In this document: piece after piece, positions 33 through 22,499 of the stretch
How the letters are laid out: each line of letters starts with the position of its first letter
Position numbering within the stretch: the first letter of the stretch is position 1
Virus record (IMG/VR): IMGVR_UViG_3300026078_000086
Span: 1 to 24,827 of that record
Strand: one strand, 5' to 3'
DNA from: a virus
Length of the DNA stretch: 24,827 nucleotides
Translations under genes and position numbers: made by a program
The notes under the pieces: model-generated
What the model saw: only the letters and a program-made list of their open reading frames with translations
The model's database searches: none
What the model was told of the DNA's origin: nothing

Positions 33-617
33 GTGACAACGATGGCCCGCAAGGTGTGTCCAGGATGTGGGGAGTCTCGGCCTGTCGACGCGTTTGCGCG
101 AGATCGGAGCAGGCGGGATGGCCGGATGCGTTTGTGCCGTCTCTGCGATCGGATCCGGCATCGGCGCTACGTCGCGGAGCACCCGGAGGAGCATCGCGCT
201 GCGCAGGCCGAAGCTATGGCGCGGTGGAAGGCGAAGCAGCCGCCGAAGCCCCCGAAGCTGTGTCGCCGGTGCGGCGGGGTGGTGGAGGATCGCCGGCGGT
301 GGTATTGCTCGGATGAGTGTCTCGCCGCGGCTCGAGCGGCGAACCCGCACAAGTCGGGTCGGCGGAAGCCTCACACCGAGTCGGCGAGCCGGCGCGGCTA
401 TGGGCAGGAGCACAAGCGGCTGCGGGAGCGGTGGAAGCGGATCGTGGACGCCGGCGCCGCGGTGTGTCCTCGGTGCGGATTGTTGATCCTGCCGGGCGAG
501 CCGTGGGATCTCGGCCACGTCGACGGGAGCGCGAAGATGCTGTACCAGGGCGCGGAGCATCGACGCTGCAATCGGGCGACGAATCGGCGTCGAAGGTTGA
601 GTCTTCAGCAATGGTGA
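33..617 (+). CDS. HNH endonuclease with zinc ribbons, packaging-associated
   Basis: This 194-residue protein has three parts. The N-terminal zinc ribbon has CPGC near residue 10 and CRLC near residue 36. A second cysteine pair set has CRRC near 77 and a YCSDEC motif near 92. The C-terminal HNH nuclease has CPRC near 145, then the DLGH motif near 157, EHRRCNRAT near 174 and a basic tail. In HK97-like phages an HNH protein next to the large terminase works with it in cos cleavage, and that is the likely role here. GTG at 33 is taken as the start; ATG at 42 is an equally good choice, since neither has a clear ribosome site. The last 7 bases overlap the TerL start. No small terminase is recognisable nearby. 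Confidence 0.85.
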   Translation: MTTMARKVCPGCGESRPVDAFARDRSRRDGRMRLCRLCDRIRHRRYVAEHPEEHRAAQAEAMARWKAKQPPKPPKLCRRCGGVVEDRRRWYCSDECLAAARAANPHKSGRRKPHTESASRRGYGQEHKRLRERWKRIVDAGAAVCPRCGLLILPGEPWDLGHVDGSAKMLYQGAEHRRCNRATNRRRRLSLQQW

Positions 618-2089
618 AGCCTCGGATCGAGTGCGTCCCTGCCGGCGATCCCGGGTTGGCGAAGGAGGCGGTGAAGCTGGTGAAGCGTGCCGGTCTTCGC
701 CTCGACGATTGGCAGCGGTACGCGTTCGAGCGAGCTCTCTACACCGGCCCGGATGGGAAGTGGAGTGCGATGGAGGTCGGCGTGGATGTCGCGCGCCAGA
801 ACGGGAAGGGTGGAATCCTCGAGGCGCGAGCTCTCGCTGGGATCTTCGTGTTCGGTGAGCGGTTGATGATCCACTCGGCGCATCTCGTCGACACGTCGCT
901 TGAGGCGATGGAGCGGCTGCTGTGGTTGATCGAGGACATCCCCGAGTTCGATTCTCAGGTGAAGCGTGTCGTCAGGACGAACGGCCGCGAGGGGATCATC
1001 TTCCGGTCGGGGCAGCGGATCCGGTTCCGTACCCGGACGAAGGGCGGCGGCCGTGGATTCACGGCTGATTGTCTGCTGCTGGACGAGGCGATGTACTTGC
1101 CGGAAATGGTGATGGGCGCGTTGATTCCGACGTTGTCGGCGCGGCCGAATCCGCAGATCTGGTACACCGGCTCGGCTGTCGACCAGATGGTGCACGACCA
1201 CGGCACCGTCTTCGCTCGTGTCCGACGACGCGGGATGGCTCAGGAGAAGGGCGTCGCCTACTTCGAGTGGTCGGCGCCGTACGAGATCGACACCGTCTCG
1301 GAGCATCTCGACGACCGCGCTGCGTGGGTGGCGGCGAATCCGGCGATGGGGATCCGCATCAACGAGGAGTTCATCAAGACGGAGCGCAGGGCGATGGACA
1401 ACCGCACGTTCGCGGTCGAGCGGCTCGGCGTTGGCGACTGGCCGAACGATGAGGACATCGACGAGGCCATCTCGTGGGATCGGTGGCGCGAACTGGTCGA
1501 CCCTGAATCGGAGATGCTCGCTCCGATCTGCGTCGCGTTCGACGTGCCGCCGGCGCGCGACCGAGTCACCATCGTCGGCGCCGGCCTGCGGCCTGATGGG
1601 TTGACCCATTTTCAGACGATGGAGTACCGCGCCGGGACGGGATGGTTCGGGAACAGGATGGGCGAGCTCGTGTCGCGCTACAACGTCCACAGCATCTCGT
1701 ATGACCCTGGTTCGCCGGCCGCGAGTCTTGTCCGCCAGCTTGAGAACATGGGGTTGGAAGTCGAGAAGGTCGGAGCCCGTGATTACGCGTCGGCGTGCGG
1801 AGCGTTCCAGGACGCGGTGATGGAGGGCACGGTCAGGCACCACGGGACGGACGAGCTGGCGACGGCGGTGAAGAACGCTGCGACGCGGCCGCTAGGTGAT
1901 GCGTGGGCTTGGTCGCGGAAGAACAGTGCGGCTGACATCTCGCCGCTGGTGGCGGCGACGCTCGCGGTGTGGCAGGCGTCGGCGAACCTGACGAGCGTCT
2001 ATGACGAGCGGGGCGTCCTGTTTGTGGGCGGTTCCGAGCCGGAGGCGCCGGCGGGTCGTCTGGTGGACGGCGAGTGGGTGTCGGCGTAG
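611..2089 (+). CDS. terL: Terminase large subunit (TerL)
   Basis: This 492-residue packaging motor takes DNA into the prohead and cuts it. The ATPase domain shows a Walker A-like ARQNGKGG with K66, then LLLDEA (D158, E159) as Walker B with the catalytic Glu. The C-terminal RNase H-like nuclease carries acidic residues in AFDVP near residue 316, SYDPG near 364 and AADISP near 438. GKG instead of GKS/T occurs in actinophage terminases, so it need not mean loss of function. The frame is open upstream to 317, but that part is a shadow of the HNH gene. ATG at 611 overlaps the HNH stop and gives a family-typical start. It ends with TAG, and the same frame then runs on into the transglycosylase. Confidence 0.95.
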   Translation: MVKPRIECVPAGDPGLAKEAVKLVKRAGLRLDDWQRYAFERALYTGPDGKWSAMEVGVDVARQNGKGGILEARALAGIFVFGERLMIHSAHLVDTSLEAMERLLWLIEDIPEFDSQVKRVVRTNGREGIIFRSGQRIRFRTRTKGGGRGFTADCLLLDEAMYLPEMVMGALIPTLSARPNPQIWYTGSAVDQMVHDHGTVFARVRRRGMAQEKGVAYFEWSAPYEIDTVSEHLDDRAAWVAANPAMGIRINEEFIKTERRAMDNRTFAVERLGVGDWPNDEDIDEAISWDRWRELVDPESEMLAPICVAFDVPPARDRVTIVGAGLRPDGLTHFQTMEYRAGTGWFGNRMGELVSRYNVHSISYDPGSPAASLVRQLENMGLEVEKVGARDYASACGAFQDAVMEGTVRHHGTDELATAVKNAATRPLGDAWAWSRKNSAADISPLVAATLAVWQASANLTSVYDERGVLFVGGSEPEAPAGRLVDGEWVSA

Positions 2090-2094
2090 AAGTC

Positions 2095-2103
2095 TGCTAG
2101 CCT
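2095..2103 (+). promoter_or_regulatory. Possible extended -10 before the transglycosylase
   Basis: TGCTAGCCT fits an extended -10 (TG-N-TANNNT). It ends 7 bases before the ATC triplet at 2111, the same distance seen between the -10 and ATG of the regulator gene at 18882. This would suit a leaderless transcript. No -35 is evident. The assignment rests on pattern only. Confidence 0.35.
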
Positions 2104-2110
2104 GACGCGC

Positions 2111-2467
2111 ATCAGACGAGTCTTCGCCATTGGGCTGGCGATCGTCCTTCTCCTCACGGCCGCGCCGGCCAGCGCCCATAGCCGCTACTGGCACCGCACC
2201 CATCCATGGGTCGGGACGGGGTGGAAGAGCGACGCGTTGTGCGTGCACCGCTACGAGGGGTCGTGGACTGACCCCGACTCGCCGTACTACGGCGGGATGC
2301 AGATGGACGTCGCGTTCCAATCGTCGTATGGGCCGTGGATGCTCCACCACTTCGGCACCGCGGATCACTGGCCGGTGAACGGCCAGCTCTACGCGGCGTG
2401 GAAGGCGTGGAAGGCCAGGGGTTGGACTCCGTGGCCGAATACGGCGCGGATGTGCGGCCTGCTCTGA
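2111..2467 (+). CDS. Secreted Rpf-like transglycosylase, non-canonical start
   Basis: The mature part matches the transglycosylase-like / resuscitation-promoting-factor fold of Actinobacteria: CVHRYEG with the expected catalytic Glu (residue 49), then YYGGMQMD, a WPVNGQ segment, and WPNTARMCG at the end. Upstream in frame is a typical signal peptide: basic RR, the hydrophobic run VFAIGLAIVLLL, then APASA. The first in-frame ATG/GTG/TTG after TerL is TTG at 2237, which would remove the signal peptide. The most natural start is ATC at 2111, which looks like ATG with one base changed; CTG at 2102 is another option. Length from 2111 is 118 residues. The role is probably cutting host peptidoglycan. 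It sits alone between terminase and portal, as a moron gene would. Domain confidence is high; start confidence is low. Confidence 0.75.
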   Translation: MRRVFAIGLAIVLLLTAAPASAHSRYWHRTHPWVGTGWKSDALCVHRYEGSWTDPDSPYYGGMQMDVAFQSSYGPWMLHHFGTADHWPVNGQLYAAWKAWKARGWTPWPNTARMCGLL

Positions 2468-2492
2468 AGCCTGTCCGTCCGAAGGCTTGTGG

Positions 2493-2498
2493 CATAAT
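2493..2498 (+). promoter_or_regulatory. -10-like CATAAT just upstream of the portal gene
   Basis: CATAAT is a good -10 hexamer in a GC-rich gap (2468-2507). It lies 9 bases before the portal ATG at 2508, so transcription would begin at or next to the start codon. No strong -35 is seen; CTGTCC at 2471-2476 is a weak candidate. A similar string (TACAATCATCTC) occurs at 10060-10071 in the tail module. Confidence 0.5.
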
Positions 2499-2507
2499 CA
2501 TCTCCCG

Positions 2508-3755
2508 ATGCAGTGGCCCTGGAGTCGGGAGAATCGCCAATCCTCGTTGAGCGAGCCGAACCAGGACGCCATCGCCCTCCTCGGCGGCCAACGAGTCATC
2601 AGCGGCGAACGCGTCGACGTTACGTCCTCGCTCGCGATCGCGGATGTCTTCGCTGCCGTCACGACGATCACCGAAACCATCGCCACCTTGCCGATGAAGG
2701 TGTATCGACAGGTCGGCGTCGACGTCGTCGAGACGCCCGACCATCGCGCCGCGTCGATGCTCGGCCAGGCGCCGAACAGCATCCAGCCGGCGCACCGGTT
2801 CTGGTCGACGATCGCCGGCCATCTCCTCTTGTGGGGGAACGCGTTCGTGGAGAAGCTCCGCGACGCGAACGGCCTTGTCAGCGAGCTCTACATCATCCAT
2901 CCATCCTGCGTCCGCATCGAGTACAACCAGGCGCTCCGGCAGAAGCGGTACGTCGTCACCGACGAGTACGGCCTGACCGAGACGGCGCTCTCGGACGACC
3001 GCGTCCTGCACATCTACGGCTACTCGCATGACGGGATCTGCGGGATGAGCCCGATCACTCAGACCAGGCAGCAGCTCGGCCTTGCGAAGGCGCGGGAGCG
3101 GTTTGAGGGCGAGGTCTACGCCAACAAGCCGTTCATCACAGGATGGATCGGCCATCCCGGCCAGATGAAGGACACCGTGAAGCTCGACGAGTCTTGGACG
3201 GCGCGCTACGGCGGCGGCGACCGCGGCATCTTCGGCAAGTCGCAGCGGCACGGAACGCCAGTGCTCGAGGAAGGCGCAAGCTTCAACCAGGTCACCGCTC
3301 CGCTCGCCGACATGGAGTTCGTCGCATCGATGCAACTCTCCAAAGTCACGATCGCCAGCATCTTCCACCTGCCGCCGGCGTATATCGGCGGCTCGGTCGG
3401 CGACTCGCTGACCTACATGACGACTGAGGGCAACCAGATCCAACTCGCCCGCCAGGCGATCACCCCCGTCACGACGAACATCCAGAAGTTCGTCGGCGCC
3501 GACCGCGGCATCTTCCCGTTCCCGAGCTGGTACCCCGAGTTCTCGCTCGCAGCGTTGATGCGGGGCGACAGCGCTGCTCGAGCGGCTTTCTACAAGGCGA
3601 TGACGGACGTGAACGCGATCGTGCCGAACGAGATCCGCGGCCTCGAGAACATGCCGCCTCTCCCTGGAGGCGACACCGTGGCGCCGGCGGCCGCGCCTCC
3701 GAGCCTGCCCGCTCCGGCGGCTGCCGACGCCACCACTCCAGGAGCGACGCCATGA
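2508..3755 (+). CDS. Portal protein, HK97 family
   Basis: This 415-residue protein forms the dodecameric DNA channel at the capsid vertex. Family features include the N-terminal segment with ITETIATLP, GNAFVEKL near residue 110, the HIYGYSHDGICGMSPI region, and the C-terminal IFHLPPAYIG with EGNQIQLARQAITP. The C-terminus ends in a Pro/Ala-rich tail, as in many relatives. ATG at 2508 is chosen; a TTG 21 bases upstream lies inside the putative promoter. The stop overlaps the protease start by ATGA at 3752-3755, so the two genes are probably translationally coupled. Confidence 0.93.
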   Translation: MQWPWSRENRQSSLSEPNQDAIALLGGQRVISGERVDVTSSLAIADVFAAVTTITETIATLPMKVYRQVGVDVVETPDHRAASMLGQAPNSIQPAHRFWSTIAGHLLLWGNAFVEKLRDANGLVSELYIIHPSCVRIEYNQALRQKRYVVTDEYGLTETALSDDRVLHIYGYSHDGICGMSPITQTRQQLGLAKARERFEGEVYANKPFITGWIGHPGQMKDTVKLDESWTARYGGGDRGIFGKSQRHGTPVLEEGASFNQVTAPLADMEFVASMQLSKVTIASIFHLPPAYIGGSVGDSLTYMTTEGNQIQLARQAITPVTTNIQKFVGADRGIFPFPSWYPEFSLAALMRGDSAARAAFYKAMTDVNAIVPNEIRGLENMPPLPGGDTVAPAAAPPSLPAPAAADATTPGATP

Positions 3756-13470: not shown

Positions 13471-15316
13471 CGAGTGCACACCCAAACTCGAGTTCAGCCC
13501 CGACCCTCTCAACGACACGACGCCCACCTACACCGACGTCACCGCATACCTGAAAGAGGCTTCGTGGAACAGCGGCGTCTCGCGTGACCTCGACCAGCCG
13601 CAGGCCGGCGGCGCGACGTTCGTGCTCCGCAACCGGAACAGGGATTGGGAGCCCGAGTACGCCGCGGGGCGCTTCGCCGGGAACATCCTCCCCCTACGAC
13701 GGTTCCGCTGGTCAATCACCGCAGACGGCGTCAGCAGGCCACAAGGCACCTACTACGCGACGAGCTATCAGGTCGTCTATCCCGACCCGAGCTCGACCGA
13801 GAGCGACGTCGTCGTCACCTGCGTCGACGGGTTCGGCGTCCTGAGTCTCTACCCGCTTCCGCGCCTCGACTCTGGCAGCACCGCTGAGACGTACGCCGAC
13901 GTCATCATGGCCGACGAACCGTTCGCCTATTACCCCGTCAATGATGGCGGCGGCAAGACGATGAGCGCCACCGCTGGCCCGCAGGGCGTCTACAAAAACA
14001 CGGTTGAGTTCGGGCATCCCAGCCCCGTCGTCGGGTCGAACGATCTCGCAGCACAGTTCACTCAGACGGGGTATGCGCGGGCGCTCCTTGACGACTCGGG
14101 GATCTGGTTCGACTCGGGAGAGTTGACCGTCGAATGCGTCGTCCAGCGGCAGAACAGTTTTCTGAACAACTTTGTCGGCGGCCCGTGGGACACGACAGCC
14201 GCGAACCGATCATTCGGCATCGACTACAACCAGATGTTCATATTCAATACTGGTGCCACGCTAAAAGCAGTCAACTTTAGCGGCGGCGCTCTCGGCGCGG
14301 GGACATATCACCTAGCCCTCACCTACGACGGTTCAACGCTCCGTGCATACATAAACGGAGTCCTCGACGTCACCGACAGCGGCGCAGGGACGCTCATCAA
14401 CCCTGACACGCCCGAGTTCGTCTACATCGGCTGGCCGCAGAACCATTCCACCTCATCGACGATCGGCGTGGACATCATCTCGAACGTCGCGTTCTACACG
14501 CACGCTCTCAGCGCCGACCGCGTCGCGGCGCATTCCACCGCTGCTCTCAGCCGCGGCTATGCCGCTCAGACCGCAGGCTCGAGGATCGCAGCGCTGGCGA
14601 CTCACCCGATCTGGTCAACCGCGTCGATCCCCGCCGGCACGGTCGTCGCCGCTCCGCGCTTCCAAGTCGGACAGGAAGCACTCGACGAGATCGTCACCAC
14701 CGCTGCCACGGAGACTCCGCAGAGCCTTTTCTTCTTCAACGACGCCGGCAACCCCGACTACATAGCGTGGGAAGACACGACCACGATCCAAGCGACGCTC
14801 GGCGAGCAGGAAGTCCAGTACGACGACATCGGCCTCGTCTACGACGATCAAGTCTTCAACCAGGCGACAGCCGGCCGCGAAGGCGGCGCCACGAAGACCG
14901 CATCTGACGCTGCCAGCCAAGCCGCGTACAGCGTCCGCGCCGCGTCCGACCTGACTGGCCTGATACTCGCGAACGACGCCGACGCCGCGATGATCAGCCA
15001 GGCGATCGTCGACCACTTCGGCCAGCCGATGTACCGCTTCGAGAGTGTCGTCCTGAACGGCGCCCAACAGAACCGCCGGACACAGATCCTCGTCCGAGAG
15101 ATCGGCGACACTATCCGCATCAAGCGGCGCGGAGCCGGCGGCACCGCGAACCCCGACATCGTCACCCGCATCATCGGCAAGGAGAAACACGTCGACGTGA
15201 ACAAGCACTTGACCTGTAGCTGGACGCTCGCCAGAGGATTCTCGGCTGCGACGGCGACGTGGCATCTCTCGCAGAGCGGCTACGCCGAACTCAACACGAC
15301 AGCGATCCTCGCGTGA
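13463..15316 (+). CDS. Tail-tip protein with LamG-like insert
   Basis: This 617-residue protein has baseplate-like ends and a carbohydrate-binding-like middle. Residues 1 to about 140 resemble distal tail / tail-tip proteins (AYLKEASWNSGVSRDLDQPQ, FVLRNRNRDWEPEY, RFRWSITADG). Residues about 145-375 form a concanavalin/LamG-type unit: FAYYPVNDGGG, ELTVECVVQRQ, LALTYDGSTLRAYINGVL, VAFYTHALSADRVAAH. From about 400 the baseplate-type sequence resumes (DEIVTTAATETPQSLFFF) and ends with LTCSWTLARGFSAATATWHL. The insert is a good candidate for host recognition. GTG 13463 overlaps the tape measure end by 8 bases. Confidence 0.82.
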   Translation: MPDECTPKLEFSPDPLNDTTPTYTDVTAYLKEASWNSGVSRDLDQPQAGGATFVLRNRNRDWEPEYAAGRFAGNILPLRRFRWSITADGVSRPQGTYYATSYQVVYPDPSSTESDVVVTCVDGFGVLSLYPLPRLDSGSTAETYADVIMADEPFAYYPVNDGGGKTMSATAGPQGVYKNTVEFGHPSPVVGSNDLAAQFTQTGYARALLDDSGIWFDSGELTVECVVQRQNSFLNNFVGGPWDTTAANRSFGIDYNQMFIFNTGATLKAVNFSGGALGAGTYHLALTYDGSTLRAYINGVLDVTDSGAGTLINPDTPEFVYIGWPQNHSTSSTIGVDIISNVAFYTHALSADRVAAHSTAALSRGYAAQTAGSRIAALATHPIWSTASIPAGTVVAAPRFQVGQEALDEIVTTAATETPQSLFFFNDAGNPDYIAWEDTTTIQATLGEQEVQYDDIGLVYDDQVFNQATAGREGGATKTASDAASQAAYSVRAASDLTGLILANDADAAMISQAIVDHFGQPMYRFESVVLNGAQQNRRTQILVREIGDTIRIKRRGAGGTANPDIVTRIIGKEKHVDVNKHLTCSWTLARGFSAATATWHLSQSGYAELNTTAILA

Positions 15317-15759
15317 TCTCCGCAACCGACAAGGCATACGCCGCAGGACTCTTCGAAGGCGAGGGATGCATCGGGATCAGCAACCAGCGCCACAGAAGCG
15401 CGCCTATTCCTGTTTGCATCCTGAGATGCAAGGTCGCAATGTGCGACTCGGAACCGCTTGAGTTCCTGCGATCGACCTGGGGAGGATCTGTGAGCCACCC
15501 CAAGCCACGTCAGAAGGAGTACCGGCCATCGCATGTGTGGGTCATCTCGACTCGGCAAGCCGCTGCATTCCTTGTTGACATCCTGCCCTACGTCCGCATG
15601 GAACGGATGCGAGACAAGATCATCTTGGGCCTTGCGTTCCAGGAGCAGAAGATACGCGGCCGGCACTCCGGGCATTCTGGGGAGTACCACCGCCGGCAGA
15701 TCTCCTACTACGAGCGGATGAAGGCCGCCAACGTGAGGGGCAGCCGTGCCTTGGACTAG
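15313..15759 (+). CDS. LAGLIDADG-type homing endonuclease, free-standing
   Basis: This 148-residue protein has one clear LAGLIDADG motif, AYAAGLFEGEGCIGI, near residue 10, and a basic body with helices (MERMRDKIILGLAFQEQ). One motif means it would act as a dimer. Here it is not in an intron or intein but sits as its own gene, overlapping the tail-tip stop by GTGA and the next gene by 14 bases. The ORF can be extended upstream to 15259, but that part lies in the tail-tip gene; GTG at 15313 is preferred. It is a likely mobile insertion into the tail operon. Confidence 0.8.
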   Translation: MISATDKAYAAGLFEGEGCIGISNQRHRSAPIPVCILRCKVAMCDSEPLEFLRSTWGGSVSHPKPRQKEYRPSHVWVISTRQAAAFLVDILPYVRMERMRDKIILGLAFQEQKIRGRHSGHSGEYHRRQISYYERMKAANVRGSRALD

Positions 15760-17214: not shown

Positions 17215-17219
17215 CATTG

Positions 17220-17942
17220 ATGGCCCACGTCTTCATCGACCGATCGAACGTCAACGGCAGCGACGACTACAAGGCCGCGCCGACGACCCACATCTACCTG
17301 AAGGTGTCGGAGGGCGCGACGTTCGTCGACCGGACGTACCTCGACCGGAAAGCGCAGGCCCGAGCCGCGGGAGCGAAAGTCGGCGGCTACCACTTCGCCG
17401 GCCACGCCGACCCCAGAGCCGAAGCCGACTTCTTCCTCTCCAAGCTCGGCACGGTCGGCGAGCTGCGGCCGTGTCTCGATCTCGAGTCGGGCCAGTCGCG
17501 GCAGTGGGCGGAACAGTTCGTGCTCCGCTGCAAGGACAAGCTCGGCTACATGCCCGTCCTGTACGGGTCGACGAGTTTCATCCAGCCGATGCGGTCGGCA
17601 TCTGCGACGCTCAGGGCGTGTCCGTGGTGGCGAGCCGAGTTCGGCCCGAACGATGGTCAGCGCCACGCCCTCACCGGCGGCGACCTCGGAGCCGTGGCGC
17701 ACCAGTACACGTCTGTCGCCCACGTGCCCGGCATCTCGGGGAACACGGATCAGAGCCACATCCTCGACGAGTCTGCGCTGCTCGTCCCGGATGGGAAGGT
17801 GTTCAAGCCGTGGGGCGTCTACAAGGACGGCGAACACGTCCGCAACTATCGCCGCTACTCGCGAGCGTTGATCTGGATGGCGCGAAACAAGCCGCGTCAT
17901 CCGGGGCATCAACGCGCGATCAGGCACAGGGAGGACTCGTGA
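17220..17942 (+). CDS. Endolysin, GH25 lysozyme family
   Basis: This 240-residue protein cuts the glycan strand of peptidoglycan. GH25 features: FIDRS near residue 7 (first acidic), KVSEG near 36, a YHFAG segment near 60, and CLDLES with D87 and E89 as likely catalytic acids; YTSVAHVPGI near 165 lies in the C-terminal beta part. After residue 195 there is a short basic tail with GVYKDGEHVRNYRRYSR that might bind the cell wall. No signal peptide, so release through a holin is expected, in keeping with the membrane proteins around it. Confidence 0.93.
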   Translation: MAHVFIDRSNVNGSDDYKAAPTTHIYLKVSEGATFVDRTYLDRKAQARAAGAKVGGYHFAGHADPRAEADFFLSKLGTVGELRPCLDLESGQSRQWAEQFVLRCKDKLGYMPVLYGSTSFIQPMRSASATLRACPWWRAEFGPNDGQRHALTGGDLGAVAHQYTSVAHVPGISGNTDQSHILDESALLVPDGKVFKPWGVYKDGEHVRNYRRYSRALIWMARNKPRHPGHQRAIRHREDS

Positions 17943-18139
17943 ACATTAAGTGGTACGAGATCATCTGGAACGCGATCTTTATGACGATTGGGTGGGGAAT
18001 CGGCGTCACGAATGGAGGTACGTCGCTTTGGTGGGCGCCGCTCATCTGCGTTGGATTCCTGTCCGGCTTCCTGCTCGTCGAGCTCGTCGAGTGGGCTGGC
18101 GGCATGTTCCTGCGCCGCGTGAGGGCTAGCCATGACTGA
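17939..18139 (+). CDS. Two-span small membrane protein, holin candidate
   Basis: This 66-residue protein has two hydrophobic segments, WNAIFMTIGWGIGVT and WAPLICVGFLSGFLLVELVEW, and a basic C-terminal end (RRVRASHD). This is the class II holin-like arrangement. GTG 17939 overlaps the endolysin stop (GTGA). The open frame extends far upstream but only as an endolysin shadow. The partner holin-like gene follows, so one may be the holin and one an antiholin. Confidence 0.7.
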   Translation: MNIKWYEIIWNAIFMTIGWGIGVTNGGTSLWWAPLICVGFLSGFLLVELVEWAGGMFLRRVRASHD

Positions 18140-18443
18140 GGCTCAGACCGACATCTACGTCCGCGGCTACAACCAGGGCCGCCAGGACGAAGCCGCCCAC
18201 ACCGCCGCGACGAACGGAGGCCCACGCTTGTTGAAGACGCCCGACATCACTCCCGCACAGGTCGTCGCCATCGTCGGCGCCGTCCTCGCCGTCGCCGCCA
18301 GCTTCGGCTTCGACATCTCGCAGGACTCGAAAGACTCGATCATGCAGCTCGTCACCGTGCTCGCCTCTGCTCTCCTCGTCGGCGACGCGGCGATCCGGCA
18401 CGGCCGCGCGACCGGCGCCGCGAAGAAGAACCTCGATGCCTAG
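18132..18443 (+). CDS. Holin-like protein, two spans
   Basis: This 103-residue protein has an N-terminal soluble part (TEAQTDIYVRGYNQGRQDEA) followed by two membrane segments, ITPAQVVAIVGAVLAVAASFG and IMQLVTVLASALLVGDAAI, and a basic tail. The ‘A..VALVGAVLAVA..FG.DIS’ arrangement is like holins of actinophages. Overlaps the previous gene by 8 bases. A likely holin for the GH25 enzyme upstream. Confidence 0.75.
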   Translation: MTEAQTDIYVRGYNQGRQDEAAHTAATNGGPRLLKTPDITPAQVVAIVGAVLAVAASFGFDISQDSKDSIMQLVTVLASALLVGDAAIRHGRATGAAKKNLDA

Positions 18444-21892: not shown

Positions 21893-22113
21893 CTGGCCAC
21901 GCGAGCACCAGTCGCGTCCGCTGCCCCATATGCAACCGCTACCCCCAACTCACCCAGAACGGCGCACTCAGAAACCACACCTACGCGTGGCCACACCCCC
22001 AAGAAGGCGAACCATGCCCCGCCAGCGGCAACCAGATCCTGCCACTCCCCGGCCAAACCACGTTGGAGGAACTATGCGACGACTCATCCCCATCGGCCTC
22101 ATCGCAGCGCTAG
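21889..22113 (+). CDS. Small zinc-ribbon protein, 74 residues
   Basis: The product carries CPIC near residue 12, then an H/C-rich segment (NHTYAWPHPQEGEPC), so a C2HC-type zinc site is likely. GTG 21889 overlaps the methyltransferase stop by GTGA. Its last 40 bases overlap the next gene, which starts at 22074 with its own GGAGG. Function unknown. Confidence 0.6.
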   Translation: MTGHASTSRVRCPICNRYPQLTQNGALRNHTYAWPHPQEGEPCPASGNQILPLPGQTTLEELCDDSSPSASSQR

Positions 22114-22499
22114 CCATCGCCGGCACCACCACCATGACGAACGCGGCTAGCGGATCGTGCGCGAACAGCTTCCCCAACGACGGCCACCCCGGTCCGTGGC
22201 GCACCACGAACAACGGCGGCACCCTCCACGGCAACACCGTCCACATCGACTGCCCCAACCCGTCGACGCACTGGAGCATCCAGTACCGCGTCCAGGGATC
22301 GCCGCCAGGCACCGGAGCGTGGGCGAACGTCATCGTCGCCGACCGCAGCGGCAACGGATCGCCGCCAGACTTCTCGTTCAGCGAATCCCCCATGTCCTGC
22401 TCGACCGCCGTCTACCGCACCCACATCGTCAACGTCGTCACCAGCGGCACGATCAACAAGCCGAGCGGCGGCGGCGGCGTGGGCCTCACCTGCGGATAA
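22074..22499 (+). CDS. Secreted Cys-containing protein, unknown
   Basis: This 141-residue protein starts with a clear signal peptide (RRL then PIGLIAALAIAGTTTM, cleavage near NAASG). The exported part has four cysteines, pairing likely as two disulfides, and Gly/Ser/Asn/Pro-rich beta-type sequence (HWSIQYRVQGSPPG, WANVIVADRSGN). GGAGG at 22065-22069 gives a firm start. An exported protein in a phage early region suggests envelope modification or superinfection exclusion, but no family is recognised. Confidence 0.75.
   Translation: MRRLIPIGLIAALAIAGTTTMTNAASGSCANSFPNDGHPGPWRTTNNGGTLHGNTVHIDCPNPSTHWSIQYRVQGSPPGTGAWANVIVADRSGNGSPPDFSFSESPMSCSTAVYRTHIVNVVTSGTINKPSGGGGVGLTCG

What the first reader, a model, noticed from the sequence alone, without database searches (positions are those of the whole stretch)
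2090..2467. Rpf-like secreted transglycosylase as a moron with no canonical start codon
An intact signal peptide and Rpf/transglycosylase domain lie directly in frame after the TerL amber stop. No ATG/GTG/TTG exists between that stop and the signal peptide; ATC at 2111 stands exactly where ATG would be expected. Options are an ATC or CTG start, readthrough of TAG (giving TerL-fused protein), or a recent point mutation. An exported Rpf-type enzyme could loosen the wall or wake dormant actinobacterial hosts, which a phage could exploit.
Basis: partly seen in the sequence, partly recalled or inferred. Interest (0 to 1): 0.72.

Follow-up and report, generated by a model that had tools for sequence, protein, structure and literature searches.

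The report
Phage wall enzyme with weak start codons
Many soil phages of high-GC bacteria carry a secreted cell-wall-cutting enzyme related to bacterial 'wake-up' factors, and in about a fifth of the different versions, this one included, the gene begins with a rare, weak start codon (ATC, ATT, ATA or CTG), probably so that little of a dangerous enzyme is made, and so that ordinary gene finders miss or shorten it.

Summary
After the TerL amber stop, an in-frame ORF encodes a signal peptide and an Rpf-type transglycosylase domain, with no ATG/GTG/TTG before the signal peptide and ATC (2111) as its first codon. Chance mutation and read-through are unlikely: a close relative (L033; TerL 80%, portal 75% identical) has ATC at the same place inside a conserved island TCTGCTAGCCT-N3-GCGCATC, although its enzyme domain differs. 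Among 87 different phage relatives with a signal peptide, 17 start at ATC (8), ATT (4), CTG (4) or ATA (1). Ten of the 17 have a Shine-Dalgarno match of 6 or more bases at proper spacing (background 1.9%). The trait changed at least 8 times on supported branches. Other genes of the same contigs show no clear excess of such starts. Three relatives that can start only at CTG/ATC have dN/dS 0.03-0.08. Profile and AF2/Foldseek place the domain with RpfB/C/E; the catalytic Glu is kept in all 17. Best reading: a Sec-exported muralytic accessory enzyme, outside the lysis cassette, throttled by near-cognate start codons that IF3 disfavours; in the window the mRNA may be leaderless. Initiation, export, activity and 'waking' of hosts are untested.

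The parts
611..2089 (+). terminase large subunit (TerL); amber stop TAG at 2087-2089
   Evidence: phrog_9 E 1.8e-76, PF20441
2095..2103 (+). extended -10-like box TGCTAGCCT, 7 nt before the ATC; possible promoter of a leaderless mRNA
   Evidence: identical in L033 with the same distance to ATC while the flanking spacer is not conserved; promoter function is inference
2111..2113 (+). ATC, proposed start codon
   Evidence: no ATG/GTG/TTG upstream of the signal peptide; ATC conserved in L033; near-cognate starts in 16 other family members
2111..2176 (+). signal peptide (M)RRVFAIGLAIVLLLTAAPASA, predicted cleavage ASA|HS
   Evidence: hydrophobic core mean Kyte-Doolittle 3.2 over 12 residues; two Arg in the n-region
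2219..2464 (+). Rpf-type transglycosylase domain; catalytic Glu at codon 2255-2257, paired Cys at 2240-2242 and near the C-terminus
   Evidence: profile against PDB: RpfB 2.2e-10; AF2 pLDDT 85.8 and Foldseek top nine hits all Rpf; Glu invariant
2465..2467 (+). stop codon TGA of the Rpf-like ORF
2490..2498 (+). second -10-like box TGGCATAAT just before the portal start, partly conserved in L033 (TGGCATACT)
   Evidence: alignment; promoter function is inference
2508..3755 (+). portal protein (ATG start)
   Evidence: PF04860 E 1.2e-65
17217..17942 (+). GH25 endolysin without signal peptide: the phage's own lysis enzyme, separate from the Rpf-like gene
   Evidence: PF01183 E 2.8e-24; phrog_291 endolysin; preceded by AGGAGG
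18132..18443 (+). holin candidate next to the endolysin
   Evidence: phrog_9752 holin E 2.1e-5

Best explanation
The ORF at 2111-2467 is a real, translated gene that starts at ATC and makes a Sec-exported Rpf-type peptidoglycan transglycosylase. It belongs to a phage family that repeatedly uses near-cognate start codons (ATC, ATT, ATA, CTG), or weak canonical ones (GTG, TTG), rather than ATG. The likely function of the weak start is a translational throttle: the initiator tRNA pairs imperfectly, IF3 destabilises the complex, and only a trickle is made of a wall-cutting enzyme that, being exported without a holin, could otherwise lyse the host too early. At low dose it remodels or loosens the wall during infection or lysogeny, apart from the GH25/holin lysis cassette. 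Shown by sequence: no canonical start, recurrence, Shine-Dalgarno placement in most relatives, purifying selection, Rpf fold, conserved catalytic Glu. Inferred: initiation at ATC, the throttle, export, activity and biological role. In the window the start has no Shine-Dalgarno and may lie at the 5' end of a leaderless mRNA.
For: ATC and its surroundings conserved in L033 despite a different enzyme domain. 17 of 87 family members with near-cognate starts, all ATH or CTG; Shine-Dalgarno of 6 or more bases in 10 of 17 against 1.9% background. At least 8 changes on supported branches. No clear excess of such starts in other genes of the same contigs. dN/dS 0.03-0.08 across L156/L161/L162, which have no canonical start. 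ATG avoided in the family (23/87 against about 140/199). Rpf fold and catalytic Glu. Precedents: IF3 represses near-cognate starts, infC is ATC in Streptomyces, sigR is GTC (PMC5472188); an exported phage transglycosylase lyses E. coli when cloned with its signal peptide (PMC7150955).
Against: No expression, proteomic or transcript data. The window and L172 have no Shine-Dalgarno at the proposed start, and leaderless messages are thought to need AUG or, in some Actinobacteria, GUG (PMC9031893). The start calls are heuristic, four of 17 were made by hand, and the control counts only genes with a Shine-Dalgarno. CTG shows 4 Shine-Dalgarno-coupled cases among 87 codons in control genes. 23 members do start with ATG, so a weak start is not obligatory.
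Confidence: 0.62

Rival explanations
1. A recent point mutation or assembly error (ATG to ATC) has silenced or misread this gene; it is a pseudogene or an artefact.
For: A single contig, no reads available; one base change would give ATG.
Against: ATC at the same place in L033, a contig from another metagenome with 20% different TerL; no ATG variant of the island in IMG/VR; near-cognate starts in 16 other relatives with intact domains; dN/dS 0.03-0.08 in three of them.
Confidence: 0.06
2. The protein is made from another codon or by another route: CTG at 2102, read-through of the TerL amber stop, or reinitiation after TerL, with ATC read as an internal isoleucine.
For: CTG 2102 is in frame and the TerL stop is only 21 nt before the ATC. 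Short upstream ORFs whose stop overlaps the start are seen in L139 and L172.
Against: CTG is CTC in L033, whose TerL stop is about 90 bp away, while ATC and its surroundings are conserved. CTG 2102 lies inside the conserved -10-like box. In relatives the upstream stops are of all three kinds, and the Shine-Dalgarno points to the ATH/CTG codon.
Confidence: 0.1
3. The start codon is real but its weakness has no function: in these hosts ATC/ATT/CTG work well enough, and the gene drifts among start codons under weak selection.
For: The start flips between CTG and ATC in close relatives (L156/L161/L162) and between GTG, TTG and ATG elsewhere.
Against: Other genes of the same contigs do not show it; ATG is depleted in the family; no ACG, AAG or AGG, the other single-base neighbours of ATG, was seen among the 17.
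Confidence: 0.17
4. The enzyme is a lysis or virion-associated lysin rather than an accessory exported factor.
For: It is a wall hydrolase in a phage; the secreted Kayvirus Tgl acts beside the main endolysin (PMC7150955); Rpf motifs occur in mycobacteriophage tape measure proteins (PMC1796659).
Against: The window has a GH25 endolysin with a holin candidate next to it 15 kb away; neighbours in relatives are varied and often replication-type genes; the signal peptide argues against packaging in the virion.
Confidence: 0.2

Closest known systems
Resuscitation-promoting factors RpfB, RpfC, RpfE (PF06737 transglycosylase-like domain)
   Same: Fold, catalytic Glu with YYGG-Q-D motif, paired Cys, signal peptide
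   Different: Phage-encoded, short, no LysM/G5 or other extra domains in the window protein; near-cognate start; resuscitating activity untested
Near-cognate start genes infC (ATT in E. coli, ATC in Streptomyces) and sigR (GTC) with IF3 repression (PMC5472188)
   Same: Near-cognate start, usually behind a strong Shine-Dalgarno in the relatives, on a gene whose dose matters
   Different: Cellular regulatory genes with one fixed start; here a phage enzyme family whose start varies among near-cognates and changed repeatedly; IF3 dependence untested; no Shine-Dalgarno in the window itself
Secreted phage transglycosylase Tgl of Kayvirus (PMC7150955)
   Same: Phage-encoded transglycosylase exported by the host Sec route, separate from the main endolysin
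   Different: Staphylococcal IsaA/SceD-like family, not Rpf; no near-cognate start reported in the abstract read here
Rpf motif in mycobacteriophage tape measure proteins (Barnyard, PMC1796659)
   Same: Rpf-like domain carried by a phage of Actinomycetota
   Different: There part of a virion tail protein; here a free exported protein

Membership tests
Rpf / PF06737 transglycosylase | sequence profile match | tested here: met
   20 of 23 relatives hit PF06737, the window alone only E 0.057; family profile to RpfB E 2.2e-10
Rpf / PF06737 transglycosylase | Rpf lysozyme-like fold | tested here: met
   AF2 pLDDT 85.8; top nine Foldseek PDB hits all Rpf, TM about 0.6-0.67, best E 0.004
Rpf / PF06737 transglycosylase | catalytic glutamate | tested here: met
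   invariant E in A1, A2 and all 17 near-cognate members; aligned with E of the RpfB EAG motif for L031
Rpf / PF06737 transglycosylase | secretion signal | tested here: met
   n-h-c signal peptide by hydropathy, 88 of 91 members with a hydrophobic core; no dedicated predictor run
Rpf / PF06737 transglycosylase | peptidoglycan cleavage and resuscitation of dormant cells | not testable with these tools
   needs purified protein
IF3-controlled near-cognate start genes (infC, sigR type) | no canonical start, near-cognate codon at the start | tested here: met
IF3-controlled near-cognate start genes (infC, sigR type) | strong Shine-Dalgarno before it | tested here: not met
   not met in the window (no match); met (6 or more bases) in 10 of 17 relatives counted with the window
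IF3-controlled near-cognate start genes (infC, sigR type) | expression rises when IF3 is low or impaired | not testable with these tools
   needs reporter assay
Leaderless genes | -10 box about 7 nt before the start, mRNA 5' end at the start codon, AUG or GUG start | tested here: inconclusive
   conserved TGCTAGCCT-N7-ATC and no Shine-Dalgarno, but the codon is neither AUG nor GUG and no transcript data exist
Phage endolysin in a lysis cassette | next to a holin, late lysis module | tested here: not met
   GH25 and holin candidate lie at 17217-18443; the gene lies between TerL and portal

The most novel reading that the evidence does not exclude
Phages have repeatedly placed an exported 'wake-up factor' enzyme under near-cognate starts so that its synthesis reads the host's translation state (IF3 relative to ribosomes): low in vigorous cells, higher in starved or waking ones; in the window's phage possibly even from a leaderless AUC message.
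Probability: 0.15. Interest if true: 0.85.

Novelty: new variant of a known kind. Interest (0 to 1): 0.62.

Why it matters
Near-cognate starts in bacteria are known from a handful of genes. A phage gene family in which about a fifth of members use them, with no clear excess among neighbouring genes, gives a natural series (ATG, GTG, TTG, CTG, ATC, ATT, ATA) for testing how initiation strength is selected. It also means that gene callers limited to ATG/GTG/TTG lose such genes or cut off their signal peptide, so exported phage wall enzymes are probably under-counted. If the throttle is tied to IF3, it would link a 'wake-up' enzyme to the translation state of the host.

Tried and rejected
Exact DNA search for a near-identical contig with another base at 2111: none; element search with ATC or ATG: only the L033 contig. 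Cultured phages: no relatives. Genome-contig scan: one hit, a contig in a Saccharibacteria MAG. Search centred on Thermoleophilia genomes was not possible (needs a genome handle). A first Shine-Dalgarno survey over half of each ORF was too diluted, and a first TerL/portal start control too loose to discriminate; replaced. A control with other signal-peptide-like genes gave 13 'no start' cases that look like spurious, mostly antisense, gene calls. General use of ATC starts in these phages: rejected. Local RNA structure around the start: no more stable than shuffles. Fold of the L033 enzyme: model too poor (pLDDT 52), no convincing family hit; its likeness to a lytic transglycosylase (CESRFDP...GVPQLS) is by eye only. 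L166 left uncalled. Searches of the held literature for free Rpf proteins of phages and for phage genes with near-cognate starts found none, which does not prove there are none.

Full report
THE FEATURE. The window is a 24.8-kb virus record with the head-gene order HNH, TerL, portal, protease, major capsid. Between TerL (stop TAG 2087-2089) and portal (ATG 2508) an in-frame ORF encodes a signal peptide and a short C-terminal domain. No ATG, GTG or TTG occurs between the TAG and the signal peptide; ATC at 2111 is its first codon.

WHAT THE PROTEIN IS. The window protein alone is a marginal hit to PF06737 (E 0.057), but 20 of 23 aligned phage relatives hit that family, and the profile of the alignment hits RpfB, RpfE and RpfC structures (2e-10 for RpfB). 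The AlphaFold model (pLDDT 85.8) finds only Rpf domains at the top of the PDB (nine best hits, probability 0.93-1.00, best E 0.004). The catalytic Glu, two Cys and the YYGG-Q-D motif are conserved. So it is an Rpf-type transglycosylase domain; activity is untested.

IS THE ATC REAL? Phage L033 (TerL 80%, portal 75% identical) carries in the same gap a signal peptide that also has ATC at its first residue, inside an island of 18 identical positions, TCTGCTAGCCT-N3-GCGCATC, while the spacer upstream and the enzyme domain behind the signal peptide are not conserved. CTG 2102 is CTC there, and its TerL stops with TGA about 90 bp upstream, so a CTG start and amber read-through are not conserved. 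A scan of IMG/VR for the island with ATC or ATG found only that contig.

THE TREND IN THE FAMILY. Viral scans gave 91 different ORFs of the family, 88 of them with a hydrophobic core before the domain. One (L166) could not be called. Of the remaining 87, 70 have a canonical start (GTG 31, ATG 23, TTG 16) and 17 do not: ATC in the window, L019, L030, L137, L157, L162, L171 and L223; ATT in L165, L168, L177 and L198; CTG in L156, L159, L161 and L172; ATA in L164. Thirteen come from an automatic rule (no ATG/GTG/TTG from 22 codons before to 2 codons after the start of the hydrophobic core). Four (L159, L165, L171, L223) were added by hand because the Shine-Dalgarno or the homologous position points to a near-cognate codon. 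Ten of the 17 have a Shine-Dalgarno match of 6 or more bases at a spacing of 4-9 (background 1.9%, p about 1e-13), for example AAGGAGGACGTT-ATC (L030), AAGGAGGACGAT-CTG (L159) and GGGAGGTACAT-ATT (L198). In eight cases an in-frame stop lies at most 12 codons upstream, so few other codons are possible (window, L030, L137, L157, L164, L172, L177, L198). On a tree of the domain the label needs 12 changes, at least 8 of them forced by supported branches (the tree was labelled before L165 and L223 were reclassified).

CONTROL. In contigs with a near-cognate Rpf start, 191 other genes show Shine-Dalgarno coupling of 16.7% for ATG and 6.9% for GTG, against 1.5% for ATC, none for ATT and ATA, 4.6% (4 cases) for CTG and 1.9% for all other codons. 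In the other contigs (1205 genes) ATC, ATT and CTG are at background. So these phages do not use such starts in general. The family against this control: 17/87 versus about 0/199 (Fisher 5e-10); ATG share 23/87 versus about 140/199 (5e-12). The control numbers are background-corrected estimates and cover only genes with a Shine-Dalgarno; related sequences are not independent, so the p-values overstate the case, but the tree shows repeated change.

TRANSLATION. L156, L161 and L162 have no canonical start, differ at dS 0.34-0.54 and have dN/dS 0.03-0.08 over the whole ORF including the signal peptide; their start is CTG, CTG and ATC. Such constraint needs translation from the near-cognate codon or very near it. 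That the start changes among near-cognates without becoming ATG in these three suggests selection against a strong start (inference).

HOW IT MAY WORK. An exported wall hydrolase acts without a holin; the secreted phage transglycosylase Tgl lyses E. coli when cloned with its signal peptide (PMC7150955). Low synthesis therefore seems to be needed. Near-cognate starts give this, and IF3 is known to repress them: infC itself is ATT in E. coli and ATC in Streptomyces, and sigR (GTC) is repressed by IF3 (PMC5472188). The window phage has a separate GH25 endolysin and holin candidate, and in relatives the gene lies among various, often replication-type, genes (functions there partly judged by eye), so a lysis role is not the first guess. 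Wall loosening during infection, or an effect on the growth state of the host, remain guesses.

THE WINDOW'S OWN CASE is the least canonical: it has no Shine-Dalgarno, and a conserved extended -10-like box 7 nt before the ATC suggests a leaderless message. Leaderless translation is thought to need AUG, or GUG in some Actinobacteria (PMC9031893), so either the transcript starts further upstream, or this would be an exception. This is the weakest point of the explanation for the window itself.

HOST. The closest cellular relative found lies on a Miltoncostaea oceani plasmid (Thermoleophilia; 46% identity to the window, 54% to L018), which hints at that class; it does not settle the host.

VERDICT. 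The Rpf-type domain is of a known kind. The recurrent near-cognate start in a phage-exported enzyme family is a new variant of a known mode of control, well supported by comparison and untested at the bench.

Noticed in passing
L033:1785-2141: Sister phage has a different, unidentified secreted domain (motif CESRFDP...GVPQLS, lytic-transglycosylase-like by eye) behind the same start element and signal peptide: an apparent domain swap that kept the ATC.
   Followed up: partly
L139:2423-2815 and L172:4866-5228: A 5-codon upstream ORF with its own Shine-Dalgarno ends in a TGA that overlaps the TTG or CTG start of the Rpf-like gene, which suggests translational coupling.
   Followed up: no
L034, L037, L038, L101 between TerL and portal: The TerL-portal gap holds different small genes (membrane-type, unknown) in related phages, so it looks like a cargo site.
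   Followed up: partly
window 22074-22499: Second secreted protein of unknown family (MRRLIPIGLIAALAIAG...), with ordinary ATG and GGAGG; no PHROG or NCBIfam hit.
   Followed up: partly
window 2490-2508: The portal start also has a -10-like box (TGGCATAAT) close before its ATG, partly conserved in L033; a second near-leaderless gene is possible.
   Followed up: no
window 15259-15759: HNH endonuclease ORF (phrog_5046) overlapping the end of the preceding gene.
   Followed up: no
L249:2437-3267: The Miltoncostaea oceani relative is annotated from a GTG at 2830 although an ATG further upstream (MLCAAVLCATFTPSTPALS) would add a signal-like segment.
   Followed up: no
L113 (contig JAIFWC010000006.1): A family member lies in a MAG labelled Candidatus Saccharibacteria; its isolate name contains 'viral', so the contig may be a phage binned with it.
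   Followed up: no
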